Shown piece by piece: positions 5,546 through 59,563 of a DNA stretch of 64,000 bases. The stretch lies in NCBI GenBank assembly GCA_950295325.1, contig OX485806.1, forward strand, positions 54,555,169 to 54,619,168, given 5' to 3'. The notes below the pieces were generated by a model. It made no database searches. It saw nothing but the letters and a program-made list of their open reading frames with translations, and had not been told where the DNA came from. Positions within the stretch are counted from its first letter, which is position 1, and each line of letters begins with the position of its first letter. The translations under genes were made by a program, and so were the position numbers. Source of the DNA: Polytrichum commune (lineage: Eukaryota > Streptophyta > Polytrichopsida > Polytrichales > Polytrichaceae).

Positions 5546-6220
5546 GGGAAACTTAGTAGTGTGAGCGTAGAGCGGAGAGCGGAAAATTTTGACTTTGTTG
5601 GATAATTTTAGGACAAGCAGTGCCTATTTCCGTGGAGTTTATAGATAATTTGAATTCAATTTGTTGGAAAGGCACCCCATTCCCGTGGGGATAATAACCC
5701 AACCTAGTTCGAGGAGCAACCGGAACCTAAAGGCGTGGAAGAATGTATTTGATATCAAAGATCTTATAATCTAGGTTTCAAATGGTTTCATATTAAATTA
5801 GGGCTGACGTCATCAATTGAAATCGAACAACAACATAAGAATCCACCTTTGGGAGGTAGGCCTAACACAAAATCAAAAGACCCTGGCATTCCAAATATTC
5901 ACAACCGTTGATTTATTTTGTTTTTATCATGTGTGAAGACTCACATGAATAGAAATCCATTGAAATAGCATTTGATTGAGGGCCTGGTCACATATGGCTT
6001 CACACTACACTTGAGGATCCGTGACCACACTACATATTTTTGGAGGTGTCTTGGGACGGCCTTTGGACACCTTCTGGTGGGCTCTCACAATGTCTTACAA
6101 AATATTTGATTGGCCGAGAAAATGTAGGTGAAGTTAGGTGCCAAACTCAAGAATTACAAAAATGTGTATCCAATTAAAAAATGTGAATCTAGATAAATGT
6201 GGATTCCACATGTATGTAGG
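5546..6220 (+). mobile_element. A-end subterminal region of element 1
   Basis: After the terminus come the subrepeats GAGCGTAGAGCGGAGAGCGG and about 650 bases of non-coding sequence. This is matched, inverted, by 40980-41786 at the A end of element 2 (shared stretches include GGACAAGCAGTGCCTATTTC and GGAGGTAGGCCTAACACAAA, with point differences). It has no ORF of note. It marks the left limit of the colinear part of the two elements. Confidence 0.85.
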
Positions 6221-6229
6221 TTGTGTATG

Positions 6230-6925
6230 TTAAATGAAATGCAAATTCCATCTACACCCTATCGGCCGGGCATGTCCAATACGGTGCACCTGGATGGAAG
6301 CTCGTGCCATAGAACTCCACCGCACAGAATGACATCTCCAATTCATCCCTAAGCGCAGCCAATTTCCGCAATGACAAATCCCCCAAGTCCGACATAAGAA
6401 TCCTCCGTGAAATCCGTGAGCTGACGTGGCGGCTATGTGAGAAACCACATCAAGTTTTGTTGAAATTGAGTGATGACGTTATGTTCGCGTGGCAAACACA
6501 CCCTTCTGAGAGCATTGGGACCCATCGCGTATTCATATTGAGCCAAAGGAAGAGCATTGAACTCCGCACTTTTATCCACAATCGTTTTCCATGCTTTGCA
6601 AGATAACCTCAAACTATGGATTTGCAACAAACGGAGTTGGGTGTCCAATGCCGTCTCTGCACCCATGTCCACCTTTGTGACACCCACCAACAAGTTTAGA
6701 ACCAAGACTGTCAATTGTACATCTTTGTCTAGATACAATACAAGTGGCTCCATTACGTGGAATTGGCGCGATCTTCCCCACCCTGATGCGTCATCCAAAC
6801 ACACACATTCATCCTATGAACGAAGCCCAAAAATCCGGCCTACCCTCTACCCTCTTAGAATGAAGAGACTAATCCAAAACAAACATATTCATCCAATGAA
6901 TCATACCCAAGAATGTAGCCTACCC
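6230..6925 (-). pseudogene. captured gene fragment of unknown origin, frameshifted
   Basis: The minus strand holds protein-like sequence in more than one frame. Near 6800-6436 it includes RLSCKAWKTIVDKSAEFNA and LAQYEYAMGPNA; near 6400-6240 a different frame reads LRKLAALRDELEMSFCAVEF and GTSFHPGAPYWTCPADRV before a stop. The segment is absent from the corresponding position of element 2, where the subterminal region leads straight to the P2 palindromes. The first part has an F-box/LRR-like flavour (C-x-AW at the start of a helix), but this is only a guess. Mutator-like elements are known to capture host gene pieces (Pack-MULEs), which is a possible origin. Confidence 0.45.
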
Positions 6926-6929
6926 ATCT

Positions 6930-8520
6930 AGTATCACTTCCGAAATGAGAGCATCCAAAAAAACAAAAACATTCATCATATGAATCAAAGTTGAGAATCT
7001 GGCCTACCCATCTAGGTTCTCGAAAGTGAGAGCATCCAAAAAATCAAAAAGATTCATCATCTGAATCAAAGTTTAGAATCTGGTTCACACATCTAGTCTC
7101 TCGGAAGTGAGAGCATCCAAAAAAACACGACCATTCATAACATGAATCAAAGTTGAGAATGTGGCCTACCCATCTAGGCTCTCGGAAGTGAGACACGGGG
7201 AGGTCACTTCATTGTCAAGTTGACACCACGTGCGGACAAAGTTTGCTACCCCTATATTACATGCCATATATAATTTTAAAATTTATGATATTTTTTCTAC
7301 ATATACATAACCATTGATAGTATCTTTTGTATATTTTTTTGAAATTTTTAGTCATCTTCATTTTTTTTAGTAATTGTTTTAGTTCAATTTTGTGTCATTC
7401 TAGTTAGAAATGGTATGTTTTATGAAAAAAACAAATCATCAAATTTAGTTACCACTTTTGACTATGTCATAGGTAATATGTATATCTACTCATGAAAAAA
7501 AATTGATAAAAATTTGACCCATTTTGGTGGTGCAACTTACCAAAAGAATATATTTTTTGGTCGCACGTGGTGTTCAACTTGACAATGGAGTGATCTACCC
7601 ATGAAGTGAGAGCATCCAAAAAAAAAAGATTCATCATATGAATCAACGTTCAGAATCTGGTTCACACATCTAGTCTCTCGGAAGTGAGAGCATCCAAAAA
7701 ATCAAAAAGATTCATCATCTGAATCAAAGTTCAGAATTTGGTTCACACATCTAGTCTCTCGGAAGTGAGAGCATTCAAAAAAACACAAAATTCATCATAT
7801 GAATCAAAGTTGAAAATCTGGCCTACCCATCTAGGCTCTCGAAAGTGAGAGCATCCAAAAAATCAAAAAGATTCATCATCTGAATCAAAGTTGAGAATGT
7901 AATTCACACATCTAGTCTCTCGGAAGTGAGAGCATCCAAAAAAACACAAAATTCATCATATGAATCAAAGTTGAAAATCTGGCCTACATATCTAGGCTCT
8001 CGGAAGTGAGAGCATCCAAAAAATAAAAAAGATTCATCATCTGAATCAAAGTTGCGAATGTAATTCACACATCTAGTCTCTCGGAAGTGAGAGCATCCAA
8101 AAAAACACAAAATTCATCATATGAATCAAAGTTGAAAATCTGGCCTACCCATCTAGGTTCTCAGAAGTGAGAGCATCCAAAAAATCAAAAAGATTCATCA
8201 CCTGAATCAAAGTTGAGAATCTGGTTCACACATCTAGTCTCTCAGAAGTGAGAGCATCCAAAAAAACACAACCATTCATCATGTGAATCAAAGTTGAGAA
8301 TCTGGCCTACCCATCTAGTCTCACTTCCGAAGTGAGAGCCAACAAAAAAACACAAAATTCATCATGTGAATCAAAGTTGAGAATCTGGCCTACCCATCTT
8401 GTCTCACTTCCGAAGTGAGAGCCAATAGAAAAACACAAACATTCATCTTATGAATGGAATTTGAGAATCTGGCCTACCCATCCAGTCTCACTTCCGATGT
8501 GAGAGCCTACAAAAAACACA
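6930..8520. repeat. P2 palindrome array (core GCTCTCACTTCCGAAGTGAGAGC)
   Basis: A palindrome with half-site GCTCTCACTTC/CGAAGTGAG recurs about every 85-120 bases. It is separated by a conserved spacer containing ATTCATCATATGAATCAAAGTTGAGAATCTGGCCTACCCATCTAG (written 5'-3' in pieces: ATTCATCATATGAATCAAAG, then TTGAGAATCTGGCCTACCC). The spacer itself contains the small inverted repeat ATTCATCATATGAAT. Around 15 copies lie here against about three in the matching region of element 2 (40730-40930). Many copies keep only one arm (TCTCGGAAGTGAGAGC). No genes. Confidence 0.85.
7194..7603. mobile_element. 410-bp TIR transposon (CACGGGG family) inside the P2 array
   Basis: AAGTGAGA flanks both sides (7186-7193 and 7604-7611). 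The ends are CACGGGGAGGTCAC and the reverse complement of CATGGGTAGATCAC. A second inverted block (CATTGTCAAGTTGACACCAC / its partner near 7570-7590) extends the TIR to about 45 bases. The interior is AT-rich with no ORF. An 8-bp TSD and related termini link it to the larger copy at 12037-14134. Confidence 0.85.
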
Positions 8521-8837
8521 AACATTCATCTTATGATTCAAATATGAGAATCTGGCCCAAAAAAAAACCAATAATCACTATGGGGAAGAGTCCGAACACT
8601 CACCAGGATGGAGTAGCATAATGCTTGTGCTTGGAAGTCTTTCATTGTGAAAAGGGTGCACGGAGATATGACCATCATTGGTAGGATATTTTCTTTGAAT
8701 GCACTAGAATAATGGGCTCAATCTGAATTTGATTAGGGTATCCTAGCTAGTAAACCACATAATGAACGGGGATGCAATATTTATCATTATGGCTATAATG
8801 CCACATGCAAAAATCTTGAGCAAACCCCCAACCCGTG

Positions 8838-9130: not shown

Positions 9131-11879
9131 CAAATTCTAGCCAAAAAACAAACTAGTTAAACCTATCAACCAACTAGTTAAACATATGTACAAATACAAG
9201 TTTTTAACCTTCAAGAACAATTGAAATCAAACAACAACATAAGATGAAGATGGAGTTGAATGTGGTTTGCAAAAGGGAAATGGAAATTCAACAAATGAAC
9301 TTATGAAAAACTTAAACATAAACAATACATAGGAGATGGAGGTTCTAAACGCACGAGGTGTAGTCAAGAACTTGGACTACCATGTCTATCACTATCCTCA
9401 CCCTGGTCGGCCTCTATGTCTAGGAAATCCAAAACTATTTTGTTAAAAGGGCGGGTGCGACTAGGAGGTGGGGACGGTGCTTCCGCCAAAAGATGGGCAA
9501 GGTCAACAGCATACGAAGGGAGCTCAAACGTCGTCGAAGGGGTTGCAAACATGTCTGCATTAAGGACACAAATCGGGTTCTCAATAGGAGCTCTGAAAAT
9601 ATTGAACAAGAAAAGAAAAAAAATTAGCACATGCCAAAAATTCGGAATCGAGAAGATAGAAATGCAAGCAAGCAAGTTAGAAGACAAGAACGAACTTACG
9701 CATAGAGCAAATCAAAATTGCGCTTCGCCATCTTCCGGGGAGGAGGAGTAAAAACCGACCCTCGTTGTGGGACAATGTGCTGAGAAGTGTGTTCTTGCTT
9801 AGTCTCACATATGGGGAGGATGATGGACTTGAAGATGTCGATATCCGACTCAAGCGCCACAAAATTGCGTTGAATGGATCGACATGCAATGACGGAACCT
9901 CCTAGAAGAACAAAATGCGAGAATGTGAGCATAAGGGAATGAATGGGAAATGTAATAAGTTTAAAATTTTAAAAAAAAACAACCAAGGCCACATTGCCAA
10001 TCCATGATAATGGCGTCTTTGTCCATGAGGGCGGAAAAAAAGATGGAAAAGAACTCGGGGCGTTTTTCATGAGCACCTCTCCAAGACACCCCGTCTTCCC
10101 TCATCGACTAGTTCTTCGAATCGGCGAAGCTATTGAGCCAACCATCTCTTTTAAGATTGTAACCCATGTCTTTGAAGTCCGAGGTCCGGACATTCAAAAT
10201 AGATTCATTACGCACGAGCATCTTGATGAAGAACTTACGAGTTTGCTAGAAATGAGAAGGGTAGAATTAGAAATACAAAAATGCAAGGAAAAAAATAAAT
10301 AGAAAAAGATGAGGCAAAAAAATGAATTACCAACTTGGATGGATTAGTGGGCGATTGGAGGTCGAGGTCATTCCTGCCAAACCAGTCTTTGGCAACGTAG
10401 AAATCCTCTGTATGTGCCTAGTTATGTATGGATCTAGACACATCAGAATCAACGGCGTGTGCAAAGACAAGAACGCCGTCGTAATGGAAGTTGGCATTTG
10501 CAGAGGCAAACAAAACCTCAAAATAAGTCGAAGAACGCTTGTTCCATTGAGGAACATCCGACGATGATGACAGGATGTCCAGCACACGGAGGTTCTCCGG
10601 CACATCTGCGAAGAGTAGATCAAGCCCTGTGTGCATTTTAGGCTTACTATTAGGTTGAATACGACCCGCTCCTACCTGCAAATAAAAAATCCATAGGAAA
10701 ATATAGAAAAACAATTGTTGAATTAGAATGAATGAACGGGAAAACAAGATAATGTCGCACAGACCTTAGTAAGGAATTCTTGGATGCGGCGGTAAGTCGG
10801 AGGGGGAACCTTGGACCGCATGAGATCCTCTATGAGGTCCCCCATGTCAACATTCTCAATCAAAGAGAGAGAAAACGACTTCTCCGAAGAAGTTGCGGAG
10901 GTATCAGGAGCAACGGCCTTCCTCTTGCACGACACGGAGGGAATGGTGATACCGCTATGGGAAGGAGCCAGAACATGGTTCCAAGAAGGGGCATAAAGAG
11001 TTGTCGTTGGACTTCCGACAACCGTGGTAGCTGGAGCTGCAGTGTGCTAAGCGGAGGCCTTGGTGAAATAACTGGTGGACACTTGAGTGGAGGCCACCCT
11101 CTTGCCTTTACCTTTGGCCTTCACCGGTGCAACCTCTTTGTCATTGGTAGGAGGGGCCGGATTCTTATCTTCTTCCGGCTCTTCCTCCAATTCAATTACC
11201 TCAGGGGCAGAGGAAGCGAGGCTATTGTAGAGGGGTTCTTCTACGTCGGAAACGAATCCACGAGAACAATCCAAGTACCAACCACCAGCCACCAAATGCA
11301 CGCGTGGAAATTTTACAAGTTACATGGGCATGTACACACAAAGATTTGAGTTGTCATCGATCCAATCGTCAAGAAATGACGGCAAGGACGAAGAAGGAAT
11401 AGCATTCTTCACGACAAGCTCACGGTGAATGTACCTACACATTAGAGAACATGAGAACAAAGAAATGGAGTTGAAAAAATGAAAACAAACGAAGATATGA
11501 AGGACAAAAGAAAAACAAAAATGATTACCGGTAAGCAACGCGCTTGATAGCTATGGGACCTTCCTCGAACTCCATGAGATCTTGAATACACCCGAAAAGC
11601 CTTGTCCCACAAAATGAGCCTCCAATGCTCGACAAAATGAGCAGGTTGCAAAAGATCTTCCGTAGAAACCCAGTCGATGTCGATGGAGCATTCATTTTCA
11701 AATGAGGCGATCTCACCCTCAACACCTTTGTCCAACTAAGATGAGACAAACATGAAGTTAGAAATCTGGTCAAAATCTGGTCGTAATGCCTAATTAAACA
11801 CACAAAGTACCCAACATAGAAGGCAAAATCTGGTCGTAATGCCTAACTAAACATACAAAGTACCCAACATAGAAGGCAA

Positions 11880-12036
11880 AATCTGGTCCTCGTGCCCTCA
11901 ACAAAAGACCCTCTCGGATCCAAGAGGGTAGTCCTCTAGAGCACACCAAACTATTTCAACAATACAACCCAACTAGGCCACCCAAGCTGAACCTATGTAC
12001 ACACTCGATGTACCCAACCTTGGAGACCAAATCTGG
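11880..12036. repeat. P1 palindrome and spacer left of the CACGGGG insertion
   Basis: One P1 site (about 11907-11929) followed by the spacer CAACCCAACTAGGCCACCCA. The same spacer unit continues at 14143, showing that the element at 12037-14134 interrupted an existing array. Confidence 0.85.
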
Positions 12037-14134
12037 CACGGGGGGATCACACCCCCTTACATTTTGTAACCATGTGCGATAATGGGGTATTTGATGGGGG
12101 GATATTTATGCACCTCTCAATATTTTTTTCCTCCCTATATGTAGATATAAAGCTACTTTGACGTATTTTTTAACACCCTATATTTATTTGTAATTGTTTA
12201 GAAAGGCTAATTTTTGGCATCATATTTTTTTTATAAATCGTACAAGTACCAAATAGTAGACGGAATACTATAGCATTGCAAAGTTGACTATGTGAGCAAC
12301 AAACGTTTCATAGCATCCATCTTGTCATTTAATCGGTTTCAATTAGTTTTACCAATGCTAAACCGTTCAAAATACCGTTCAAAACACAATCAATAACACT
12401 TGGATATTATTTAAAATGTTACCAATAAATATGGAGATAACAAAATGTACAAGCTAACATAGACAAGTTGTAAAAACGGATAGAACAAAACAAGAAACAC
12501 AATCAATTATCACAAAACATGATTTTTTGTACAACTATGTACTCCAAAAACAAAAGATTGCATTCAAATGAAAGAAAGTTAAATACACCAATTGAAAACA
12601 TTTACTTCAATTGTGTTCACAAACACATTCAACCTTGTATCAAATATTTATAATGTGAAGGGTTAGGATATAACTATGCACCCTCCAATATATGTCAATA
12701 TCCTTTACAATGTCATGATAAGACTAAACAATTTGGAGAGATTTGCTTAACACCAATGATGACGAATAACTAAAACTAATTGATGGCATGAAGCGGGTAA
12801 CATTTAAAGTCTCCAACCACTCCACCAAGTCTTCATCCAAGGCAGAGTGCAAGGCAAAGCGCAATCCTCTACGTCTACAACGGTGACGTTGCCAAATGTT
12901 GTAGCGCATCATCGATCATCTACAAAAGATTGTTGTAGCAAAAACATAATCAATAGAATATTGGCATATTGGACACTACTAGCATTATTATGATTACATA
13001 ATAGAATTTGTAATTTTATGTTTGAAATCTTCGAAATAAACCTATAATTCTAGGGTTGAAAATGATCACATGAAAAAAATTGGCTCACATTTTCGAGATG
13101 ATCCCAATATCGGCCTTTCTAGAACCCAATTCCAACCTCACGAACTTTTCTTAATCTCTTTTTCATCTGAGTAATCTCCTAGTTTCCACGACATTAGTTT
13201 CAGTTCAATGACAAAATTGGCCTCTCATGGAATGACACTACAATCTCCAATAGGACCTCGTCCTCTGACTACGAAACCACATGCTACACAAAATCCGAAT
13301 GACACATCTCATCAAAACGTACACATTTTTACAACTATTGGTAGCTACATCAGAACATCCCACTTGAGGTAGATGTCTCAAAGAACAAGATACAAATACA
13401 TAATAACTTGGAAAGCATTTCATCTTTCTACGCTCACATTCAGATTTTCTAACTGTTCATCTTTCTACATCTCACATTTAGGAGGGCGTTGGAAATCAAT
13501 AGCATGTGGTCAAAAAACAAACAGTGGAAGGGAAAAGTCAAGGAGTTAGAGTTTGAAATCAATTCTTACCGCATGCAAGCGGAGCAAGCTGAATCTTTGG
13601 CGCTCATGAAACACCTTGTATGAACGTTATGAAGCAAAGAAGAAAACTCCAAAAAATGTGTCTTACCTACCGCCTATGCGCCTCACTTCACCAACGCAAG
13701 ACCTCCTACCCGAACGCTTCACCGCCTTCACGCCACTGTGCTTGCCCAACCCTAAGCAAGCCAAGGGCCATTGAGAAGTCACAACATTCCTTCCCCCAAA
13801 AAATCCACAACATTTCCCTCCATACTAACGCGTTTCATTCAAATTTGGACAAAATTTACACAATTCTTCATCCAAGTAGTCAAACCCATAACTATTCTAT
13901 CGATCCTACTACACACATTTGGGGGGATCCAATATCTAATACCCTATTTTTTTTCTACTAATTACTAAAATGGAGGAATTATTCACCACATAATTTACAA
14001 ATAATCATGTAGAGGACATATTTCCAATGATATTGTAGATCTAACGAATTTGTAAAATTTACCCTCGATGAATTAAATTGACCCTACTTTTTATCTCACG
14101 TGGTTTTGAAAATTTCAATAGTCACCTCCCCGTG
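12037..14134. mobile_element. 2.1-kb TIR transposon (CACGGGG family) with perfect 8-bp TSD
   Basis: AAATCTGG lies immediately on both sides (12029-12036 and 14135-14142). The left end reads CACGGGGGGATCAC and the right end is the reverse complement of CACGGGGAGGTGAC. The interior is AT-rich. I find no transposase. Short ORFs near 12724-12912 and 13620-13961 look non-coding or at best remnants. With the copy at 7194-7603 this defines a small family, hAT-like by TSD length. Confidence 0.87.
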
Positions 14135-14142
14135 AAATCTGG

Positions 14143-15230
14143 TCTAAATACACTCAACTAAAGACCTTCTTGGATCCGAGAAGGTCGTCCTCTAGTGCAC
14201 ACCCAACTATTTCAACATCACAACCCAACTAGGCCACCCAAGTTGAACCTATATACACACTCAATGTACCCAACCTTGAAGTCAAAATCTGGTCTTAACA
14301 CACTCAACAAAAGACCCTCTCGGACCCGAGAGGGTCGTCCTCTAGAGCACACCAAACTATTTCAACAACACAACCCAACTAGGCCACCCAAGTTGAACCT
14401 ATATACACACTCCATGTACCCAACCTTGAAGTCAAAATCTAGTCTTAACAACCTCAACAAAAGACCCTCTCGGATCCAAGAGGGTCATCCTCTAGAGCAC
14501 ACCGAACTATTTCAACAACACAACCCAACTAGGCCACCCAAGTTGAACCTATGTACACACTCGATGTACCCAACCTTGGAGACCAAATCTAGTCTAAATA
14601 CACTCAACTAAAGACCCTCTCGGATCCGAGAGGGTCGTTCTCTAGTGCACACCCAACTAGGCCACCCAAGTTGAACCTCTATGCACACTCCATGTACCCA
14701 ACCTTGGAGTCAAAATCTGGTCTAAATACTCTCAACAAAAGACCCTCTCGGATCCGAGAGGGTCGTTCTCTAGTGCACACCCAACTATTTCAACATCACA
14801 ACCAAACTAGTCCACACAACATGACCCTAACTACACACTCAGTGTACCCAACCTTGAAGTCAAAATCTGGTCCTAATGTCGTACCGACACTATCAACCGA
14901 ACTAGTCCACAACAAGTTCACCCTATATACACATATAATTTTCACAACTTGGAGGCCAAAATTTGGTCTTAATGCCCTACGCTCACACTATCTACACATC
15001 AAACCTTCCCAACCATGAAGTCAAAATCTGGTCCTATTGTTATCAACGAAGACCCTCTCGGATCCAAGAGGGTCGAGGTCATGTGCATACCCAACTAATA
15101 CAACATATCAAAAAAAGTACTTCGTACAAGTTGAGCCTATCTACCCTTACAAGCTTTACAACCTTGAGGTCAAAATGTAGTCCTAATGCCATTGAGGTTG
15201 AAATGAGGCAATGTCACCCTCACTAAACGT
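14143..15230. repeat. P1 palindrome array, spacer family S2
   Basis: P1 sites occur near 14163, 14313, 14463, 14612, 14740 and 15050, mostly 128-150 bases apart. The spacer reads CAACTATTTCAACATCACAA and GTCAAAATCTGGTCTTAA. At 15190-15225 the minus strand contains a truncated copy of the start of exon 6 of the ParB-like gene (GAGGGTGACATTGCCTC, compare GAGGGTGAGATCGCCTC at 11700). The array and exon edge were therefore duplicated together. The apparent 138-aa ORF at 14195-14611 is a translation of the repeat. Confidence 0.85.
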
Positions 15231-16173
15231 GTAGTTAGAGATGACAAAGAGTGAAAGAGAACAAATTAAAAAGTATAAGGTATTGGAGCACCTGTGCCCA
15301 AAAAGAAGCTTTGTGAAGCCAGTCATCGAGGGTTTTCTCGCAAAGAGGAAAAGAAGAGGGGAACTTGTTTTTGGTTTTGACCTCGGCGGGGGAATTCCAC
15401 CACCGAAGCCATTTAGCCTTAAAGGAAGCATCCACATGTGTAGTTGCCACCTTTTGCAGTTTCTCAATAGTCATATCCGGGATAAGGAAGGTGGAGAAAT
15501 GACGGTCAATATGCAAAAATGAATAGTGTAATGTAAGGGAATATACATAAAGCACAAGTAGAAAAACACAAAGGTGGAAGCAAACAAAAATTGAAGAGGT
15601 GCAGGGAGTACCTCTTGAAAGAAGTCATCGCCGTTGTCCTTGTGGGCGACGGAGATGAATTTTTCAAAGTTCCGAGATCGAATACTCTTGATCAATCTAT
15701 CCTGGGCTTTTGTCATAGCATCCCAAATCCCAGGAGGAGATCAAATAGCCTCGGGAGTGGCCTCAGGGTATAACCGTGCAACAGTATCCGCCGAATTGGA
15801 GATCTCTCTCTAAATTAAACAGAGATGTGTGTAAGGATAAATGCACAAAACATGGGAAAAAACTATAGCGAGGAGAAATATTACCTTGTATAAGAACTTC
15901 ACGAAGACGTCCAATGTGAGGGGATACCAAGTAGGACTCTTCTCCATCTTAGCTTCGCACATCTTGTAGTCGTCAACCGAAATGAGGTCCTTGAAATCCT
16001 CAAGCTTCATTTTTCCAAATGTACGAATGCGAAGCAATTTGGCGGGGAGGTTGTCCTTAACATAATCGTGCTCCGTGGACCTAGAAAACAAAGTAATGAG
16101 GGTCCAAAAAACAATGAAACAGAAAAGGAAAACGTAAAAGGAAAAGAAACAAGGGAAAGAAACCTGAACTTAC

Positions 16174-16934: not shown

Positions 16935-17144
16935 AAGGGAACTCGAATAAATGAAATATCTATTGACAAAAGAGATGAAGCAATGCCCAATTTCATACCA
17001 GAGGAACCTCCAATGGAACAGTCTGGTCCTCCATTGAGGGCTCCTCTGATAGAATGAGATCCATGGATGGTGATCCTTGCAAAAATTCAACACATTCAAG
17101 CTTTAGAACCTTGCAGTCAAATGTGGTCAACATGCCTTGAAGAA

Positions 17145-18870: not shown

Positions 18871-19009
18871 TAGCTACCTCGTCAAGATTGCAGAATATGG
18901 TGTCGATATCTTTCATCCTTCTCAATTTTGAAACCTCAGTGGATTTTTCTTGTTGGGTATGTGCAAGTGTCGATATCGATTCATATACAAGAACTAAGGT
19001 TTTTTTCAT

Positions 19010-24125: not shown

Positions 24126-24129
24126 CATT

Positions 24130-26450: not shown

Positions 26451-26599
26451 ATGAAAACGTTGGAGGTAGTCGCAATGACGATTATGGCACTCGAGGTGGC
26501 CAACGCAGGTGGACGAACAAAAAGCAAGGGCTAAGTCATTGCTAATGTTGGTGGTTTGGATTTTGGTCCAGACATGGCTGTCGTAGCGTTTGTCCATGC

Positions 26600-37912: not shown

Positions 37913-37920
37913 TATCTTAG

Positions 37921-40332
37921 TTTGAGAAAGGGGTTGAGGGTGAGATCGCCTCATTTGAAAATGAATGCTTCATCGACATTGACTGGGTTTCTATGGAAGA
38001 TCTTTTCCAACCTGTTTATTTTGTTGAGCATTGAAGGCTCATTTTGTGAGACAAGGCTTGTGGAGTATATTTTGATGACAAGGGTGTCTTAAAGTTCACC
38101 AAAGGGCTCGATCTCATGGAGTTCGAGGAAGGCCCCTTAGCTATCAAGCGTGTTGCTTACCGGTAATCATTTTTTCTTTTTCTTTTGTCCTTCATATCTT
38201 CGTTTCTTTTCACTCCATTTCTTTGTTTAAATTTTCTTCACTTTGTAGGTACATTCACCATGAGCTTGTCGTAAAGAATGCTCTTCCTTCTTCGTCCTTG
38301 CTGTCTTTCCTTTACGAGTGGATCGATGACAACTCAAATCTTAGTGTATACACGCCCATGCAACTTGAAAAATTTCCACGCGTGCATTTGGTCGCTGGTG
38401 GTTGGTACTTGGATTGTGCTCGTGGATTTGTTCCTGACGTAGAAGAATCCCTCTACAATAGCCTCACTTCCTCTGCCCTGAGGTAATTAAATTGGAGGAA
38501 GAGCCGGAAAAAAATGAGAATCCGGCTCCTCCCACCAATGACAAAGAGGTTGCACCGGTGAAGGCCAAGGGCAAGGGTAAGAGGGTGGCATCTAGCTAAG
38601 TGTCCACTCGTTCAGCGCATTCCAGCTATGACAGTTGTCGGAAGTCCAATGGGAACTCTTTCTGCCCCTTCTCGGGACCATGTTCCAGCTCCTTCCCATA
38701 GCGGTGTCACCATTCCCTCCGTACCACGCAAGAGGAAGGCCGTCGCTCCGGATACCTCCGCAACTTCTTCGGAGAAGTTGTCTTCTCTCTCTTTGATTGA
38801 GAATGTCCACATGGGGAGCTCATAGAGGATCTCATGCGGTCCAAGGTTCCACCTCCGGCTTACCGCCGTATCCAAGAATTCCTTACTAAGGTTTGTGGGA
38901 CATTCTATTGTTTTCTCGTTCATTCATTATAATTTAACAATTATTTTCTTATATTTTTCTTTGGATTTTTTATTTGCAAATTGGAGCGGGTCGTACTCGT
39001 CCTAATAGCAAGCCTAAGATGCACACAGGGCTTGATCTACTCTTCGCAGATATGCCGGAGAACCCTTGTGTGTCTGGCATCTCGTCATCATCGTCTGATG
39101 TTCCTCTATGGAACAAGCGTTCTTCGACTTATTTTGAGATTCTCTTTGCCTTTACTAACGCCAACCTTCATGACGACGACATTCTTGTCTTTGCACATGC
39201 CGCTGATCCTGACGTGTCTAGATCCATACATAACTGGGCACATACAGAGGACTTCTACGTTGCCGAAGACTGGTTTGGCATGAATGACCTCGACCTCCAA
39301 TCGCATACTAATCCATCCGAGTTGGTAATTTCTTTCTTGCCTCATCATTTTGTATTATTATATTCTTTTCCTTGCATTTTTGTATTCCTAATTCTACCTT
39401 TCTCATTTATTGCAGACTCGCAAGTTCTTCATCAAGGTGCTCGTGCGTAATGATTTTGTTTAGAATGTCCGGACCTCGAGCTTCAAAGAATATGGGTTAC
39501 AATCTCAAGAGAGATGGTTGGCTCAATAGTTTCGCCGATTCGAAGAACTAGTCGGTGAGGGAAGACGGAATGCCTTGGAGAGGTGCTCGTGAGAAACGCC
39601 CTAAGTTATTTTCTATCATTTTCTCCGCCCTCACTGACAATGACGACATTATCATGAATTGGCAATGTGGCCTTAGTTTGTTTTTGTTTTTCTTGTTTCT
39701 CATTACTTTGGTCTTTGTTGTTTTGCTTTTTTTTTACTTGTTCTATTTCCCATTCATTCCCTTATGCTCACCTTCTCGTATTTCGTTCTTCTAGGAGGTT
39801 CCGTCATTGCATGTTGATCCATTCAACGCCATATTATGGCGCTTGAGTCGGATATCGATATCTTCAAGTCCATTGTCCTCCCTATGCGTGAGACTGACCA
39901 AAAACACACTTATCAGCATGCTGTCCTACAACAAGGATTGGTTTTTGCTCCTCCTCCCCGGAAGATGGTGAAGCGCAATTTTAATTTGTTATGTGCGTAA
40001 GTTTGTTCTTGGCTTCTTACTTGCTTGCTTGCATTTCTATCTTCTCGATTCCAGATTTTTGGCATGTGCTAATTTTTTTTGTTTTCTCGTTCTATATTTT
40101 CAGAGTTCGTATTGAGAGCCCGATTGGTGTCCTTAATGCGGACATGTTTGCAACCCCTTCGACGACGTTTGAGCTCCCTTCGTATGCTGCTGACCTTTCC
40201 CATGTTTTGGCGGAAGCGTCGTCCCCACCTCTTAGTCACACCCGCCCTTTCAACAAACTAGTTTTGGATTTCCTAGACATAGAGGCCGAGCAGGGCGATG
40301 ATAGTGATAGACATGGTAGTCTAAGTTTTTGA
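37921..40332 (+). pseudogene. 3' half of the ParB-associated multi-exon gene in element 2 (exons 6-11)
   Basis: Exons read 37921-38162, 38249-38890, ~38981-39324, 39416-~39680, 39795-39996 and 40104-40332, with GT donors and mostly intact AG acceptors. They are colinear with 11735-9364 of element 1 and clearly homologous. Product segments include RYIHHELVVKNALPSSSLLS, HLVAGGWYLDCARGFVPDVE, PKMHTGLDLLFADMPENPC and FNKLVLDFLDIEAEQGDDSD. Exon 8 here is open where element 1 has a stop. Exon 6 carries two stops, exon 9 several, and the acceptor of exon 8 is lost (TTGCAAATTGG). Exons 1-5, including the ParB-like domain, are absent and replaced by P1 array. No known domain is recognised in this half. 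Confidence 0.65.
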
Positions 40333-40494
40333 CTACGCCTCGTGCGTTTATGTTTGAGTTTTTTATAAGTTCATTTGTGGAATTTTCATGTGCCTTTTGC
40401 AAACCACATTCAACTCCTTCTTCATCTTATGTTGTCGTTTGTTTTCAATTACTCTTGAAGGTTGAAGGCTTGTATTAATTTTGTACATATGTTC

Positions 40495-40950
40495 AACTAC
40501 TTTGTTGTTTGGCTGAAATTTGACCCTCTCGGAACCGAGTGGGTCTTAGTGTAGGAATCAAGGACGAGATTTAAGATAGGTTCGGGTGGATGGGATTGTA
40601 TCTTTTTTGGTTAGGTTGATATTTCTCAAGTTAAGGTGTTGGGCAATGTAGGGACCCTGTTGGTTCCGAGAGACTATATGTGTGAACCGCATTCTCAACT
40701 TTGATTCATATGATGAATCTTTTTGTTTTTTTGGATGCTCTCACTTCGGAAGTGAGACTAGATGCGTAGGCCAGATTCTCAACTTTGATTCATATTAAGA
40801 ATGTTTCTATTTTTTTGGATGCTCTCACTTCCGAGAGCCTAGATGGATAGGCCACATTCTCAACTTTGATTCATATGTTGAATATTTGTGTTTTTTGGAG
40901 GGCTCTCACTTCGGAAGTGAGACTAGATGGGTAGGCCAGATTCTCATTTA
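40495..40950. repeat. P1 site and short P2 array of element 2
   Basis: One P1 site (about 40522-40545), one decayed P1 (about 40655-40675) and three P2 sites (near 40735, 40825 and 40905) with the ATTCATATGATGAAT-type spacer. This is the counterpart of 6930-9130 in element 1, where the same repeats are several times more numerous. Confidence 0.82.
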
Positions 40951-40979
40951 GGCCACATTTATCTGGATTCTCATTTTTT

Positions 40980-41786
40980 AACTGGATACACATTTTTGTA
41001 ACTCTTGAGTTTGACACCTAGCTTCACCTACATTTTCTTGGCCAATCAAATATTTTGTAAAACATTCCGCTCCTTCATCAGAAGGTCTAAGAATACTCGG
41101 AAAGAATACCCTAGCTACTTGGGGCAATGTATCACTTTGGACAAAATCATTTAAGAACACTTAAGTACATTTAAGGGCTACTTCACACACGAGCCAAGAG
41201 TTGTGACCATGAATTGTGAGAGCCCACGAGAAGGTGTCCAAAGGCCATCCCAAGACACCTCCAAAATTATGTAGTGTGGTCACGGATTTTCAAGTCTAGT
41301 GTGAAGCCATATGTGACCAGGCCCTCATTCAAATGCTATTTCAATGGATTTCTATTCATGCGAGTCTTCACACATGATAAAAACAAAATAAATCAACGGT
41401 TGTGAATATTCAGAATGATAGGGTCTTTTGATTTTGTGTTAGGCCTACCTCCCAAAGGTGGATTCTTATGTTGTTGTTCGATTTCAATTGATGACGTCAG
41501 CCCTAATTTAATATGAAACCATTTGAAACCTAGACTATAAGATCTTTGATAACAAATACATTCTTCCACGCCTTTAGGTTCTACTTGTTTCTTGAACTAA
41601 GATGCGTTATAATCTCCACGGGAATGGAGTGTCTTTCCAACAAATTGAATTCACTCTATCTATAAATTCCACGGAAATAGGCACCGCTTGTCCTAAAATT
41701 ATCCAACAAAGTCAAAATTTTCTGCTCTCCAATCTCCGCTATCCGCTCTCTGCTCTCCGCTCTACGCTCACACTACTAAGTTTCCC
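40980..41786 (-). mobile_element. A-end subterminal region of element 2
   Basis: Inverted match to 5546-6200. It includes the terminal GGGAAACTTAGTAG, a longer run of GAGCGGAGAGC-type subrepeats (41715-41775) than element 1, and the sequence around the AAACAAAATAAATCAACGG stretch. Non-coding. Confidence 0.82.
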
Positions 41787-41795
41787 GTACCTAAT

Positions 41796-44700
41796 ACTGG
41801 TCCAGCGGTTATGCCCTGGACTCACAGTTGTGAACCCTTTGAGTGGTCCACCACTCTGCGGGATCACTTTTAGTTAGAATGTTAGCATTAAAAGTTAGAA
41901 TTGATAGGGAATTTAGGAAAAATTAGTTCATTTAGCATTTAGCCTAGAAGAAGGAAGGTCAAAATGAAACTAAGTAGTGCTAGAAGATAGCAAAGTAGAA
42001 AAAATGTGCTAGCTAGTAAAAACAACTAGCTAAGCAAATATTAGTAGATGCTAGTTATTAAGCAAATGTTAGTAGATGCTAGCTAAGCAAGTGTTAGTTT
42101 ATTAGTTAGTGTGAGGCACACAAGACTATTGGAGGTGTTTTACGTAAGAAGATAAAATCGGCGTGAAGAATTTTGAAGACAAAAAAGAAAGAGAGCAAGG
42201 GGGCTACTTGCCCACTTGCCCCCTTGCCAACTCGATGGCGAAAAATTAGAAAGATTTCTAGGTTCCCCGTCGGAGCCACCTTGGCGAGAGGGTGGCAACC
42301 TCAACCGGGAAAACCCCCGAGCCAAAATTTCGGGAAAGGGTTTGAAAAATGGATCCGGTGGAGGAGGGGTCCAACCCTTTTGTGAGAGGGTTTAAAAACC
42401 CCTCCTTCCACCTTGTAGCTCTCTCTCTTTCTCTAGTTTTTGGGCGAAGCCCTGCTTCAATGTAGTTAGGAAAAAATCCTTTAGCATGTATTCTCAATGG
42501 TCTAAAAGAAAGGCTTGAGAACCTCCTCTACTCTCTCTCTCCTAGTTAGGTTGTGTGTTTATTAACACACCAACAAAATTATTCCTTCTTTTGTAGAGGT
42601 AGGTTGGATGGTAGAGTTTTGAGTAGAGGCATTATAGACCTCATCTGCCAATGCCATGAAGGCTTAGTTCAAAAGCTAGAACAAGATACTTATCATTTTT
42701 CTCTTAGAGAGATTTCATATAGCTATCCATAGCCGTTTCCCATTTGTGATTTGGTTGAGATGACAATTAGTTATGGATTTTCAAAGATGGAGTAGAAAAA
42801 CTGGGTGGTCTTGTGGGTAGCGGCTGCTGGATCAGACCTGCGAGCCCAATAGGAATTTAAATTCTAAGAAATTATATTTTTCCCAAGTAGAACTTTTGTG
42901 TAGCTTTCCAAAATGGCTTAGAAAATTTGATTTGAGCATGATTTGAATTAGATATGAATTGTGCAAGATGGGACACATAGTTTGAGAACTTTTGGTTGAC
43001 TGCTGCATTACAGAGGACCTGCTGGGTTCACTTCGGCTTACCTTTCTAATCACATATTTTTATCAAATACATCTTTTTAATATCTCTCCAGGGTCATATA
43101 GAACGTTTGATTTGACTAAGATTTGAATTAGATATGAATTGTTGAAGGCGAGATACATAGTTTAAGCCTTCTTGATTGACTGCTGTGTTACAAGGAGTCC
43201 GCTGAATTTCTATTAGCTTAACCTGCTGATGTCATAATTTTTCTAGTTAGAGCTTGTTCATAGCTTTCCAATGGTATAAGGAAAGCTTAGATCCAAGTAG
43301 TAAGGAATGTGCTATGAAATTTTGAAGTTAGAAGGTAGATAGGTGGGTTGGAAGGGTCGGTTGAATCGACCTCACACTTCCAACCCTCATAACTTTTGCA
43401 TTTCTTATCCGATTAGAGTGATTTTTAGATCATTGAAAAGATAATTTGGTGCACTAAGTATAAATATTATGCTTAGGATTAAATTACAGGGAAGAATAAC
43501 ACTTTATATTTTAATTGTTAACTAAGGTACGCTTACTACCAAACTAGTTACAAAGAAGGAGGCAAGGTCGACGCTCGGAAAGTGGAGCAAGGAAGGAGGT
43601 AGCGGCTCGGCCTACATCAAGCCCAAATCAACCGAGGAAAATTGAGGTAAATTAACTAACCTTAAGCCTTCCATTTAGGATTGGAGGGAGCACGGCTAAG
43701 GTACGCATTTCTAAACCCACTCACCTATCTCGTAAGGTCAAGTGGCTTGACCACTTGACCGCCAAGGGAGTACCCAATTCCATTGTTTTCGGGGCCCTTG
43801 GTATGTTTTGTGGTAGTAGCTTCATTTATTAGCAAGTTTCGTGTGTGGTAAGTCGGATTAATCACCGACACGACCACTCTGAATGTTGTTGGTGGAAAGG
43901 TGGGGTTAATGACCCGCGAATCCACTATTATGTTGTTGGCCCCATAGATTGGGAGTAATGGCCCCAATTTATGAAGATTGCGCAACAGGTTGAACCTACA
44001 AGTCGCCCGTCACCCTGGTCCCATTCAGTTGCATTTCGTAGTCTATCCAGTGTAAACACATTTAACAATCAAAACATACAAAATAAATCGTAAACCCTTG
44101 TTGGCAAGAGACCCGAGGTAAGGGGTGATGCCTAATATATTAATGTAGTAAGTTAGGACGTGCAAACAAAAGTAAGTAATTAAGAAGGAATTTGTGTGAA
44201 GGGTGGGACTTAGGCCAAGTTCCCCCGCTTAGAAAACTAAATAGAACTAAATAAAGAAATAGGAAGAATTGAATGGTCCATCAAATTGTCGTTATTCCGT
44301 TCGTTGAGTTAGGGTGGTATGAGTCACACCCGGTTGGGTGTATCAGAACCATCCCAATTCACAAATTAGGATTGCCTTGGTTTCAAGGCTGGTGCGTCTG
44401 CGCGTAGAATAGGTTGTAGGTTAAGGTTAGAACTAGATATGAAATTGGTTAGTGGAGTTTAAAGCCACACTAGTAAAAAACTAAGGCCTAACCTCCGGAG
44501 GTACTACGACGCATATTTAATCTCCCTTAAAAATCTAACTACTCACGTTATACACCTATCATCCGGGTTCGGCTTGGGCGCCTGCAAATGCAGGCCACCT
44601 TCACCGAAGGGCTTGTGTGATACTTTTAGGCTCCCTCGAAAGGGGGTGGCCCAAAAGTACCACAACAGTCCAACAGCTTTAATAGTATTTAGAGTTGGAT

Positions 44701-45136
44701 TAGAGGCAGGGTAGCAGTACAGTAATTAGGCGTGAAGCTGGTGGTTCGGATTGGAAATGAAGGGTAATGTGGGAAGCAAGGGGGTGATTGACTTAGGTAG
44801 TATTAGGCTGGGTGGTTAGTTAGGAGTGGGACTAGTACTTAGGGGTGCCAGGGAATTAACAATGAGGATGAATTAGCCTCGACCTAGGATTAATAAAAAA
44901 GGGGAGGGTACACGAGCAAGTACCAGGCTACCGGGACTAAAAGTATTTCTAAATACTTGTGATCTTGCTTCCTTGTGAGTAAAGTGGTCGTGTTATTCCC
45001 ATTGGTGGTGTAATGTGTATTGGGGTGCCATGATGGGTTGAGATTACTTAAATACATGTAAGCATCGGGCCTCCACCCGGACTATGACACATAAGGGTGG
45101 GGGTTTGGGGCTCACAGTGGGGGTTTAGGGCTGACA
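41796..45136 (+). repeat. retroelement body right of element 2, no gene seen
   Basis: This 3.3-kb stretch continues the host sequence of element 2. It shows runs of TAGTAGATGCTAGTTA near 42040, repeated paragraphs around CTGCTGGATCAG / TGACTGCTGCATTA (42820-43210), and an ending related to LTR copy 1 (AAGTATTTCTAAATACT, CCACCCGGACTATGACAC). The start (GGTCCAGCGGTTATGCCC…GTTGTGAACCC, 41798-41845) faintly resembles tRNA A and B boxes. No ORF has coding character. Confidence 0.5.
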
Positions 45137-46450
45137 AAAGATTCACGACGCAAGTGGGTCGACAAATTCTCTGCTGACCAAGAACGACCTCCGATCCCTC
45201 CCGTGTGGCCTGTCAAGCTTGGTACCAACCTCACTCGTCCGGAGATCTTCAAGCTTGAAAATGTCGGCTTTCAGCTCCTGCAAAAAGAACACATCACGCC
45301 CACTCACCTCTTTAACACATCCGCTCCTCCCCTGGACCTCTCTAGAATAGACGTTCCTACCAATCCAAACGCTTATGCTTCTTCCAAGCAGTCCAAGTCT
45401 ACCAGACGATCTGCCACCGCACCATCAACAAAACAAATGCAAATGGTGGCGTCTGCACGAGCTATGGACATACCATCTTGAAGGTCACCATGATTCCATG
45501 TCCTAGATTTGGTTGTGTGATCATGTTGCAGTCCAAGCCTGCACCTACACAATCCATTTACCAACTCACCGTGAGTTCTCTGCCCAAGTGTAATTGTCCG
45601 GCCTTGAAGGATATGATATCAAAGTTTGGCCGGAAACGAACTTTGTTCCTGCATTGTAAGCACCTATACTTCATATTTGTCAAGGTCTCTAATGTAGACC
45701 CCGAAGTTGACTTGTTCATTCACGCCCCTACCTTTAGCTTCAATGAGGTCAAACTCATCCTCAAAGGGGGCCTCTTGACACAGTCTACTTCCTAGAATTA
45801 CTCCCATCCTAGCACTACATTTTGTGTTAATGGATGTGGTCAGTTCTGGACTGAATGTGAACTCATAATTGATTTCTATAATAAATATAATCTCATGGAT
45901 TATTTTTATTCCCTTTAAAATGTTGTATTATAATACTCAATTGTGGCATGTATCACTCGTCCGGTTGAGCAGTATATATTCAATTTGGAGGTGTTTCCTA
46001 TGTCTACCAATTATACTTCCGTGTTGCCAATTTCCTAGATGATTCGCACTTCATTTCATTGTCTTTGTTTTACGGAGGTGAACCCGGTCGAAGCAAATCA
46101 ATGTACGAAACCATTTTATCCCTCATTCGATCCTTCAATGGACGACGATGCGGCGATATTCCTCTCATCCCATCGCAAAACGACAAAGACCTCGAAGATT
46201 TGCCTACCACCTTGACATCCTGCTCCGTGTGGATTGTTTTGTCTTCATTCAAATCAGACGCATCATTTGCCTCACTATTCATGCACCTTGTTTCGTCTTT
46301 CTCCTGCACATCACCTCGTATTTTTATCATTTTTTGCATATCGTTTATGCTCCTCCTACATCCTCCACCTCCAGGCTTGTGTGGACTGCGAAAATGGAGT
46401 CAGCTCGTAGTGATCACTATATCGATTTGCAGCACCTATGTCATGTTCCG
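45137..46450 (+). pseudogene. Mutator-like transposase of element 1, 3' part with SWIM zinc finger
   Basis: The frame picks up as DSRRKWVDKFSADQERPPIP and runs to a stop at 45479. A second frame from 45478 contains SLPKCNCPALKDMISKFG and LFLHCKHLYFIF. The C-x-C…C-x-H pattern (CNC and CKH, with an FIF tail) is a SWIM zinc finger, the usual C-terminal module of plant MULE transposases. Further protein-like sequence (QMIRTSFHCLCFTEVNPVEA, near 46030-46120) suggests the product extended close to the B-end region. The frames are broken in at least three places. It is the continuation of the gene interrupted at 20626. Confidence 0.7.
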
Positions 46451-46826
46451 GCAATGAATTAAAAGGAACATGCGAATCTCCTAGAATTCTAATGTCCTTC
46501 TCCCATCCTAGGCCAGCAAACATGTCTATCTCCTCTCCCATTGTGTGCATGTGTTTCTACATTCATATTGGGTATGAGTCTAAATTATATCCTCATATAT
46601 ATTGAGTTCAAGATAATCTCTTCGACCACAAACAATAATTGTTGGAGTCTAAGCTCTACAGTTGACTCACACATAAGACAAAGACAAAAGTGATGAAATA
46701 AAAACGAAGCAAGTTGGTAGCCCTTTGTATTTTGATTGACTCATTCTTCAACTATACCAATCTCAAAAAAAAAAATTATTTATTATTTCTTGGGATCAAC
46801 ATTGGTTTTTATCATTTACTTATCTA

Positions 46827-47580
46827 CAGGGTTGTCTATCCCGACGTCATGACGTGTCGTGTCGTGACGGACCCCTCCGTCACGACACAATAGGGTCCAC
46901 GTAGGGTCACCCTAGGGGGAAGCTAGTAGGGTGGGTAAAATACTTACCTTCTTGCCAAGGTGGCGTCCTATGTGGCAGAAAAGGCCGACGTGGACGTGGA
47001 TATGCCTAGCGCCAAGTAAACCATTTTGCCATTCTGTTTATCATTCTATTAAAATCAAAGTAGTAAAATATGACTAAGGAGGGTGTGGGGCAGACCCGGG
47101 GGGGGGGGGGGAACGGAGCCGACGGGGGCGGACGGGGCGGGAACGGGGCGGACGGGGGCGAAAACGGGGGGAGACAGGGGGGAAACATAGTGGACGGGGG
47201 CAAAAACGAGGGCGGACAGGGGGGGGAACGGGGGCGGACAGGGGGGGGAACAGAGCGGACGGGGGCAAGAATGGGGGCGGACGGGGGGAAAACGGGGGTA
47301 GACAGGGGGGGAACGGAGCGGACGGGGGCGGGAACAGGGCAGACGGGCGTTAGTAATTTTTTCCCCACTTTACCTCTACTTTGCTGACATGTCATCACAC
47401 GTGGACATCTTACATCCTACGTGTCCTAAATGGGGTATTGTAATTACACACAGAATTTGGTAAAATTTAAGTCCGTCAGGATAAAGACAGCATCCGACAT
47501 AATGTCGTGACAGATACGTGTCGTGACGGCACGACATTATGCCGAGATTAGCCTCCATCACGACACAATAGACAACCCTG
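46827..47580. mobile_element. 754-bp non-autonomous hAT-like element with G-rich minisatellite
   Basis: CTTATCTA flanks it exactly (46819-46826 and 47581-47588). Its ends are CAGGGTTGTCTAT and the exact inverse ATAGACAACCCTG. An 8-bp TSD with CAGGG termini is the hallmark of hAT transposons. Internal inverted blocks built from GTCGTGACG lie at both ends. The centre (47090-47345) is a GGGGGCGGACGGGG-type minisatellite. No transposase is encoded; the proline-rich ORFs on both strands come from the G/C tract. Confidence 0.92.
47090..47345 (+). repeat. G-rich minisatellite with G-quadruplex potential
   Basis: Runs of 4-13 G separated by CGGAC, CGGGAAC or AAAAC recur through 250 bases, for example GGGGGGGGGGGGGAACGGAG and GGGGCGGACGGGGGCG. 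The sequence is strongly strand-asymmetric and unlike its AT-rich surroundings. Confidence 0.85.
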
Positions 47581-47852
47581 CTTATCTATTATATCACAAT
47601 TTTCTTATCATTTTAGCACTTCACGGTTTCCAAACTCAATGAGACCATTTCAAATTTAGGGTCTTTCATTTATTTTATGACCTAAACATTCCACGGAAAT
47701 AGGTCACATTTTTTACTATTTTGGGAGAATCTAGAATATTCTAGGTATATCCAAATCTTTTTAAAAATATTTCTGAATTTGATCTGAGAAGTTTATTATT
47801 TTTACTTCCTCTCTGCTCTCCGCTCACATAGGAGTGTCGTCCCATGCCGTGA

Positions 47853-59545: not shown

Positions 59546-59563
59546 AAACCCTAAACCCTAAAC
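59546..59563. promoter_or_regulatory. telo-box (AAACCCTAAACCCTAAAC) at the presumed promoter
   Basis: Two and a half plant telomere repeats lie just upstream of the CT-rich leader of the second ParB-like gene. In plants telo-boxes near transcription starts are regulatory sites. Similar short motifs occur at 60532, 61454 and 61719, so an interstitial-repeat explanation is also possible. Confidence 0.5.

What the first reader, a model, noticed from the sequence alone, without database searches (positions are those of the whole stretch)
5546..47843. Giant Mutator-like transposon with 9-bp TSD, a ParB-like gene and palindrome arrays as cargo
Both ends of a 42-kb interval begin GGGA/TCCC, are flanked by ATGCCATGA / ATGCCGTGA, and share TGTGAGCG plus GAGCGGAGAGC subrepeats. 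Seen in sequence: ends, duplication, internal MULE/SWIM transposase. Known: Mutator elements make about 9-bp duplications and can carry genes. Inference: this is one mobile unit with a ParB-like cargo gene. Such large gene-carrying MULEs with palindrome arrays are not, to my knowledge, described.
Basis: partly seen in the sequence, partly recalled or inferred. Interest (0 to 1): 0.9.

Follow-up and report, generated by a model that had tools for sequence, protein, structure and literature searches.

The report
Transposons carrying their own palindrome arrays
Large jumping genes in an unnamed plant carry, beside the enzyme that moves them, a bacterial-looking protein gene and arrays of a palindrome that differs from family to family in step with that protein, which suggests a self-recognition system.

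Summary
The interval is a real transposon insertion, but not one 42-kb unit: a ~23.9-kb element (w5546-47842) with an inverted 18.4-kb relative nested inside (w23393-41786). The duplication is 10 bp, not 9. Of 109 listed A ends, 33 have a correctly oriented B end within 60 kb (wrong arrangements 2-6); 15 of 23 tested pairs show a >=9/10 duplication (0 of 506 controls). The "ParB-like cargo" is an element gene: in copy e5 it reads as 10 exons, 1086 aa, opposite the transposase, with a weakly ParB-like N-terminus and an adenine-methyltransferase-like C-terminus with an apparently altered catalytic motif. Perfect palindromes form conserved islands in noncoding DNA and are family-specific: three protein families, three palindromes (13 of 14 own-type, 0 of 30 other-type co-locations on C1). 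Palindrome type follows the accessory gene, not the transposase. ParB-methyltransferase genes are published for algal transposons and self-binding motif arrays for VANDAL/VANC; seven library searches on the subject showed no report of both together. Best reading: VANC-like self-recognition by a ParB-methyltransferase-derived protein; binding and function are inferred. Mutator membership is supported by TSD length and motif, not by PF10551.

The parts
5536..5545 (.). left copy of the 10-bp target-site duplication, CATGCCATGA
5546..5582 (+). A terminus of the outer element (GGGAAACTTAGTAGTGTGAGCGTAGAGCGGAGAGCGG)
6255..6813 (-). third conserved reading frame near the A end (matches e5 424-1077, 74%); function unknown, no Pfam match
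6876..8557 (.). 81-bp tandem arrays with an imperfect palindrome (GCTCTC-N6-GAGAGC)
9364..16751 (-). ParB/methyltransferase-like gene of the outer element (matches to the e5 model at 16739-15609, 15519-15253, 11735-10319, 10242-9367); at least one in-frame stop
14135..14787 (.). palindrome-I array inside an intron of that gene
17144..18707 (.). palindrome-I array between the two divergent genes
19008..20598 (+). transposase exons of the outer element (middle part; N-terminal part not found by tblastn)
23383..23392 (.). left target-site duplication of the nested copy, GTACCCAATA
23393..41786 (-). nested, inverted 18.4-kb relative (B end at 23393, A end at 41786); no match to residues 1-440 of the accessory protein and only a transposase remnant
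25765..26624 (-). transposase remnant of the nested copy
26882..37894 (.). palindrome-I arrays of the nested copy (120- and 139-bp units), discontinuous
37921..40326 (+). second half of the accessory gene (methyltransferase-like part included) in the nested copy
41787..41796 (.). right target-site duplication of the nested copy, GTACCTAATA
45131..45792 (+). C-terminal transposase exons of the outer element with the SWIM-like motif CxC-x19-CxH
47815..47842 (-). B terminus of the outer element (inverted GGACGACACTCCTATGTGAGCGGAGAGC)
47843..47852 (.). right copy of the 10-bp duplication, CATGCCGTGA
50011..50993 (+). transposase relative (38-51% identical by segment to e5) of a neighbouring element of another family (family III)
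53317..63650 (.). about 20 dispersed copies of palindrome III, GTTTACGGACGCGCGTCCGTAAAC
53682..57808 (-). long frames of the family-III element; 56327-56857 weakly ParB-like; 54953-56326 resembles the methyltransferase-like part only by eye (no family match)

Best explanation
The interval is a member of an abundant family of large DNA transposons (12-56 kb between paired ends with duplications, later insertions included) that make 10-bp target duplications. The fuller copies carry two divergent genes: a transposase (+ strand) and a 10-exon accessory gene (- strand) whose product joins a weakly ParB-like domain to a beta-class amino-methyltransferase-like domain that looks catalytically altered. 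Noncoding parts (intergenic space, introns, 3' side) hold arrays of a short perfect palindrome specific to the family. Most likely mechanism: the accessory protein binds this palindrome as a dimer, marks copies of its own family across the genome and keeps them expressible or mobile (anti-silencing or transcriptional control), in the manner of VANC proteins on VANDAL motifs. Shown: the element, its duplications, the gene pair, the conserved palindromes, and the match between palindrome and accessory-protein family. Inferred: binding, dimer symmetry, anti-silencing, loss of catalysis.
For: Paired ends: 33 of 109 listed A ends correctly paired against 4, 2 and 6 in wrong arrangements. Duplication: 10 of 23 perfect at 10 bp, 15 of 23 >=9/10 counting the nested copy at its corrected end, 0 of 506 controls. 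A 1086-aa frame through ten exons with GT-AG introns in copy e5. Methyltransferase: phrog_18293 E 1.4e-4, CcrM model E 0.0067, DpnA 5hfj E 0.037, on overlapping motif-I stretches. ParB: phrog_1033 in 7 of 46 homologues, best E 0.0098, and the family-III exon E 0.018. Palindromes: pairwise identity 0.84-0.96 inside the motif against 0.24-0.79 in neighbouring 10-bp blocks; each of five element sequences (one partial) holds one type only. Genome counts 1484 (I, TT form), 2171 (II), 790 (III); reversed-pattern controls 0. Co-location within 5 kb on C1: 13 of 14 own type, 0 of 30 other types. Mosaic: outer and e1 share palindrome I and an accessory protein 84-92% alike where e1 was the query (e5 59-74%), yet outer's transposase is nearer to e5 (88-90% in two of three segments; e1-outer 70-83%), so the palindrome goes with the accessory gene.
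Against: No binding, methylation or expression data. Arrays travel with their element, partly inside the accessory gene's introns, so association of palindrome with protein family is partly expected by linkage; the 44 comparisons come from few lineages. Of 18 palindrome clusters in the complete C1 listings, 5 have no listed own-type exon within 5 kb (exon lists are capped), and one own-type exon (C1:49660) has no exact site. No Pfam match for the protein; no PDB match for the ParB-like profile or the presumed motif-IV half; an undescribed phrog_21494 matches 6 of 46 ParB-like exons; both AlphaFold models failed (mean pLDDT 33 and 34). The nested copy is rich in palindromes but lacks the ParB-like exons, so it would depend on other copies. 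CpGs in palindromes mutate 0.9 to 2.1 times as often as other motif positions, no clear sign of hypomethylation.
Confidence: 0.55

Rival explanations
1. The accessory protein is an active N6-adenine or N4-cytosine methyltransferase that writes a mark on its own palindromes (the idea offered for the Ectocarpus Sola1 gene).
For: Order of motifs by eye and motif-I similarity to DpnA/CcrM; published proposal for algal relatives (PMC12477816, passages).
Against: Where beta-class enzymes have DPPY (recalled), 4 of 4 copies read DIPE, DVPE or DMPE, and motif I reads DWQCGVG. The alignment of that region to DPPY is by eye only (searches found no methyltransferase match).
Confidence: 0.15
2. The palindromes are binding sites of the transposase itself or act as DNA hairpins or replication/recombination signals, like subterminal repeats of CACTA elements (recalled); the accessory protein does something else.
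For: The termini carry repeated GAGAGC half-sites that resemble half of palindrome I; perfect palindromes can extrude.
Against: Arrays lie thousands of bases inside and in introns of the accessory gene; e5 and outer have near-identical termini and the closest transposases in two of three segments (88-90%) but different palindromes.
Confidence: 0.17
3. The arrays are neutral tandem repeats that expanded by slippage; palindromy is incidental.
For: Tandem repeats are common in large plant transposons (recalled); units also differ in copy number.
Against: The palindrome stays at 0.84-0.96 identity while the sequence beside it falls to 0.24-0.79, in family III to random level, where copies are dispersed rather than tandem; three families each keep a different perfect palindrome.
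Confidence: 0.08
4. The first reader's single 42-kb Mutator-like unit with a ParB-like cargo gene.
For: Outer ends and duplication are genuine.
Against: Inner B and A ends with their own duplication; the ParB-like exon recurs in the family.
Confidence: 0.02

Closest known systems
Sola1-1_Ec32 of Ectocarpus and the green and red algal transposon genes cited with it (PMC12477816, passages; Iyer et al. 2011 and Petroll et al. 2025 known to me only as its references)
   Same: 21.5-kb element; a 1104-aa ParB-like + DNA methyltransferase protein on the strand opposite the transposase; proposed to bind and modify its own transposon
   Different: Sola1 is another transposase superfamily (4-bp duplications, recalled); the passages I saw mention no palindrome arrays and no altered catalytic motif; host is a brown alga, here a genome with LEAFY-type domains, so a streptophyte
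VANDAL elements with VANC proteins, Arabidopsis (PMC5735166, PMC10398659, PMC13317346, passages)
   Same: MULE-type element with degenerate terminal repeats; an accessory protein specific to its family; short motifs in tandem repeats in introns and upstream regions; motif differs between families
   Different: The protein here has no Pfam match, though it was not compared with VANC sequences directly; the VANC21 motif YAGTATTAY is not a palindrome; binding and demethylation are shown there, only inferred here
Bacterial ParB-parS and ParB-methyltransferase fusions (recalled)
   Same: ParB-type domain and palindromic sites
   Different: Similarity is weak (best E 0.0098); nothing indicates partition
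Pack-MULEs (recalled)
   Same: Mutator-type elements with extra genes
   Different: Here the second gene recurs across the family and is not a passing host fragment

Membership tests
Mutator superfamily | 8-11-bp target-site duplication (recalled) | tested here: met
   10 bp; 15 of 23 pairs >=9/10, 0 of 506 controls
Mutator superfamily | MULE DDE domain (PF10551) | tested here: not met
   0 of 19 homologues match at E<=1; none of 142 listed genomic matches lies at the transposase of outer, e1 or e5; one, C6:24752392, lies about 18 kb from an A end on the strand expected of a transposase and was not examined
Mutator superfamily | SWIM zinc finger after the DDE domain | tested here: inconclusive
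   CxC-x19-CxH in 3 of 3 copies read; no Pfam SWIM match
Mutator superfamily | acidic catalytic residues | tested here: inconclusive
   D297, D333 and E359 invariant in 19 of 19; assignment as catalytic is by eye
Mutator superfamily | long terminal inverted repeats (recalled) | tested here: not met
   the two ends share only short subrepeats, not long repeats; also degenerate in VANDAL
ParB-methyltransferase transposon accessory genes | about 1100-aa protein on the strand opposite the transposase | tested here: met
   1086 aa in e5, start codon not determined
ParB-methyltransferase transposon accessory genes | ParB-like domain | tested here: inconclusive
   phrog_1033 in 7 of 46 members, best E 0.0098; no consistent Pfam and no PDB match; N189 and H190 of the GNH motif invariant in 46
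ParB-methyltransferase transposon accessory genes | amino-methyltransferase domain | tested here: inconclusive
   motif-I similarity E 1.4e-4 to 0.04; the motif-IV tetrapeptide is non-canonical by eye
VANDAL/VANC | VANC homologue | tested here: inconclusive
   no Pfam family at E<=1; no direct comparison with VANC sequences made
VANDAL/VANC | family-specific motif arrays in noncoding regions | tested here: met
VANDAL/VANC | accessory protein binds the motif and removes methylation | not testable with these tools
   no binding or methylation data
Sola1 | 4-bp duplication (recalled) | tested here: not met
   10 bp

The most novel reading that the evidence does not exclude
Plant transposons have reinvented sequence-specific self-recognition from a prokaryotic-type ParB-methyltransferase: the enzyme lost catalysis and became a dimeric reader of a palindrome, and protein and palindrome have diverged together, swapping between transposase backbones as a module, into at least three orthogonal pairs in one genome (more are likely, since a clade 56-57% identical to family III lacks palindrome III).
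Probability: 0.35. Interest if true: 0.85.

Novelty: new variant of a known kind. Interest (0 to 1): 0.68.

Why it matters
How transposons escape silencing without disturbing the rest of the genome is an open question, with VANC as a well-worked case in plants. Here is a second protein, with no detected resemblance to a known family at Pfam level, that sits beside family-specific motif arrays. It also offers a missing partner for the ParB-methyltransferase genes reported in algal transposons: a candidate target site. Three protein/palindrome pairs in one genome make specificity directly testable by a simple binding assay.

Tried and rejected
One 42-kb element: rejected (nested copy with its own duplication). 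A 9-bp duplication: rejected (0 of 23 pairs perfect at 9 bp, 10 of 23 at 10 bp). Homologues of the full 1086-aa protein: none found, probably because database entries of such genes are single exons outside the length window; the first exon alone gave 145 homologues and a transposase piece 295. Structure prediction: both models unusable, so no fold search was run; the first job was sent with only two sequences before the larger alignment existed. Direct homology between the e5 protein and the family-III frames: none significant by tblastn. CpG decay as a proxy for methylation: indecisive. Host name: a guess at a haircap moss found no support in the library; only LEAFY-type domains were shown. 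A 34-bp B-end-like stretch at w29808-29841, inside a palindrome of the nested copy, is not the nested element's end, because the duplication is at w23383-23392. Of the 23 pairs tested, six lack a duplication (<=3/10) and two have 8/10; the six may be mispaired by the nearest-end rule. Eleven of the 33 pairs were not tested for duplications.
Full report
What is there. The window lies at C4:54555169-54619168 of an unnamed 408-Mb genome that has LEAFY-type SAM domains at four places, 0 of 14 control genomes having any, so the host is a streptophyte. Blast of the ends against the window showed an inverted copy inside: B end at w23393, A end at w41786, flanked by GTACCCAATA and GTACCTAATA. So the outer element is about 23.9 kb (42,297 minus the nested 18,394 and one 10-bp duplication), and a relative inserted into it.

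Is it a transposon family? The A-end pattern occurs at 173 places and the B-end pattern at 296 (<=3 mismatches; reversed controls 2 and 0). Of 109 A ends taken from the listings have a B end in the right orientation within 60 kb; three wrong arrangements give 4, 2 and 6 (100 of the 296 B ends were listed). For 22 of these 33 pairs (the outer element among them) and the nested copy I compared flanks: 10 of 23 are perfect at 10 bp, 14 are >=9/10 as scripted and 15 with the nested B end at its right base (read); none is perfect at 8, 9 or 11 bp; of 506 mismatched pairs none reaches 9/10 at 10 bp. The paired ends with a >=9/10 duplication are 12.1 to 55.8 kb apart, later insertions included.

Gene content. 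I read two further copies in full: e5 (C5:23475068-23501352) and e1 (C1:36990806-37016698), with duplications of 9/10 and 10/10. Comparison of reading frames across e5, e1, outer and nested shows one gene pair on opposite strands plus a small third frame near the A end, the latter not found in the nested copy. In e5 the minus-strand gene reads through ten exons without a stop (1086 aa; the start was not determined; two donor sites were chosen to keep the frame). In the window the gene spans about w16751-9364 and has at least one in-frame stop; the nested copy keeps only its second half. The plus-strand transposase is interrupted by other repeats in e5 and e1 and by the nested element in the window.

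What the proteins are. The C-terminal part of the accessory protein gives weak but concordant matches to adenine methyltransferases at VVMDWQCGVGGSIVACRSLERHIVALESDP: phrog_18293 E 1.4e-4, NCBIfam CcrM E 0.0067, PDB 5hfj (DpnA) E 0.037. Upstream of it 4 of 4 copies read LDLLFAD-[IVM]-PEN, where beta-class enzymes have DPPY (recalled); I take this as an altered catalytic motif, by eye, and two PDB searches with that region found no methyltransferase. The N-terminal exon has 145 homologues; the 46 aligned share the core WEGNHRLTAW, with N189 and H190 invariant. Its ParB-like nature rests on phrog_1033 matches in 7 of 46 members (best E 0.0098; an undescribed phrog_21494 matches 6), on the family-III exon (phrog_1033 E 0.018, DUF1015 E 0.047, DUF6551 E 0.12) and on the motif. 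Pfam, PDB and structure prediction did not confirm it. The transposase has 295 homologues, invariant D297, D333 and E359 in the 19 aligned and a C-terminal CxC-x19-CxH in 3 of 3 copies, but no PF10551 match in those 19, although 142 PF10551 matches are listed elsewhere in the genome. I therefore call it Mutator-like by duplication length and motifs, superfamily unproven.

Palindromes. Outer, nested and e1 carry ACCCTCTCGG-WW-CCGAGAGGGT (I): 17, 56 and 54 sites at <=4 mismatches. e5 carries GGCCTCGGATCCGAGGCC (II): 10 sites. The neighbouring, partly seen element in w48-64 kb carries GTTTACGGACGCGCGTCCGTAAAC (III): 18 sites. No element has a site of another type, and one shuffle each of e1, e5 and the neighbour has none. 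Pairwise identity is 0.90-0.96 within I and II and 0.84 within III; in the ten-base blocks beside them it is 0.33-0.79, in family III 0.24-0.33, that is random (sites were chosen by resemblance, <=5 mismatches, which sets a floor). The arrays lie between the divergent genes, in introns and 3' of the accessory gene. Exact copies in the genome: 1484 (I, TT form), 2171 (II), 790 (III); reversed patterns 0.

Match between protein and palindrome. On C1, in the stretches where the palindrome listings are complete (100 places are shown per search), 13 of 14 ParB-like exons of a family have that family's palindrome within 5 kb (I: 2 of 3, II: 3 of 3, III: 8 of 8) and 0 of 30 exon/palindrome combinations of different families do; two exons only 56-57% identical to family III lack palindrome III. 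Seen from the other side, 13 of 18 palindrome clusters there have a listed own-type exon within 5 kb (I: 2 of 4, II: 3 of 5, III: 8 of 9); the exon lists hold only the best 150 of 915-1297 candidates, and one of the five without (C1:24.59 Mb) lies in an element with a perfect duplication. Elements of a family share descent, so Fisher's p of 2.7e-10 overstates independence.

Which gene goes with the palindrome? The transposases tell another story: outer is 90% and 88% identical to e5 in the middle and C-terminal segments, against 83% and 71% to e1 (a third segment does not decide, 70% and 70%). So the copies are mosaics, and the palindrome type follows the accessory gene, in whose introns part of the arrays lies. 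I lowered the transposase rival slightly for this. Each family keeps perfect symmetry with a different sequence, as expected of a dimer site that changes with its reader.

Prior knowledge. [quoted passage not shown] Passages of PMC5735166, PMC10398659 and PMC13317346 say that VANC proteins recognise short motifs arrayed in tandem in introns and upstream regions of their own VANDAL family and remove methylation there. Nine searches of the paper library (two were about the host) listed no report of ParB-methyltransferase genes with cognate palindrome arrays, or of such genes in a Mutator-like element; I saw listings only, apart from the four papers named. The library lacks most subscription journals, so this is not proof of absence.

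Judgement. The gene kind is known and the idea of self-binding is in print. New here, as far as I could search, are the Mutator-like carrier in a streptophyte, the palindrome arrays as candidate targets, their family specificity in three pairs, and the apparently altered catalytic motif, which favours a reader over a writer. Binding and function remain to be tested.

Noticed in passing
C4:41.5-59.1 Mb of the source genome: 35 of 89 exact A-end matches and 29 of the 40 best places lie in this 17.6-Mb stretch, about 4% of the genome; it may be a low-recombination or sex-linked region.
   Followed up: no
window 48000-64000: A neighbouring element of another family (III) with its own transposase relative, long minus-strand frames and about 20 dispersed palindromes; its ends were not located and it may run past the window.
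   Followed up: partly
window 52258-53040 (-): Frame matching Pfam NIF (NLI-interacting-factor phosphatase, E 2.4e-12); either a further gene of the family-III element or a captured gene.
   Followed up: no
window 29808-29841: A B-end-like sequence (GGACAACACTCCTATGTGAGCGG) sits inside a palindrome of the nested copy; the same GGACAACA variant appears at six listed places, all on C4, 9.7-12 kb from an A end in five of them.
   Followed up: partly
window 47104-47347: G-rich minisatellite with roughly 21-bp units (ACGGGGGCGGACGGGGGCGGGA) just inside the B end of the outer element.
   Followed up: no
window 6255-6813 (-); e5 424-1077: Conserved small frame near the A end, 74% identical between e5 and the window; LRLCCKAWKKIVD recalls an F-box by eye, but there is no Pfam match.
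   Followed up: partly
e5 and e1, e.g. around e1 8737, 20723, 22386: Repeated insertions with the palindromes GCTGTCCCGGGACAGC and ACTTCCATGGATGGAAGT, probably another transposon, interrupt the transposase gene.
   Followed up: no
P0016 and P0227 (unnamed database proteins): A transposase homologue and a ParB-like-exon homologue are listed with the same longest-contig length (318,782), the only shared value among 51 and 21 entered, which suggests linkage in another genome.
   Followed up: no
C6:24752392-24752691: A PF10551 (MULE) match about 18 kb from the A end at C6:24770548, on the strand expected for the element's transposase; own transposase of a divergent copy or a nested element.
   Followed up: no
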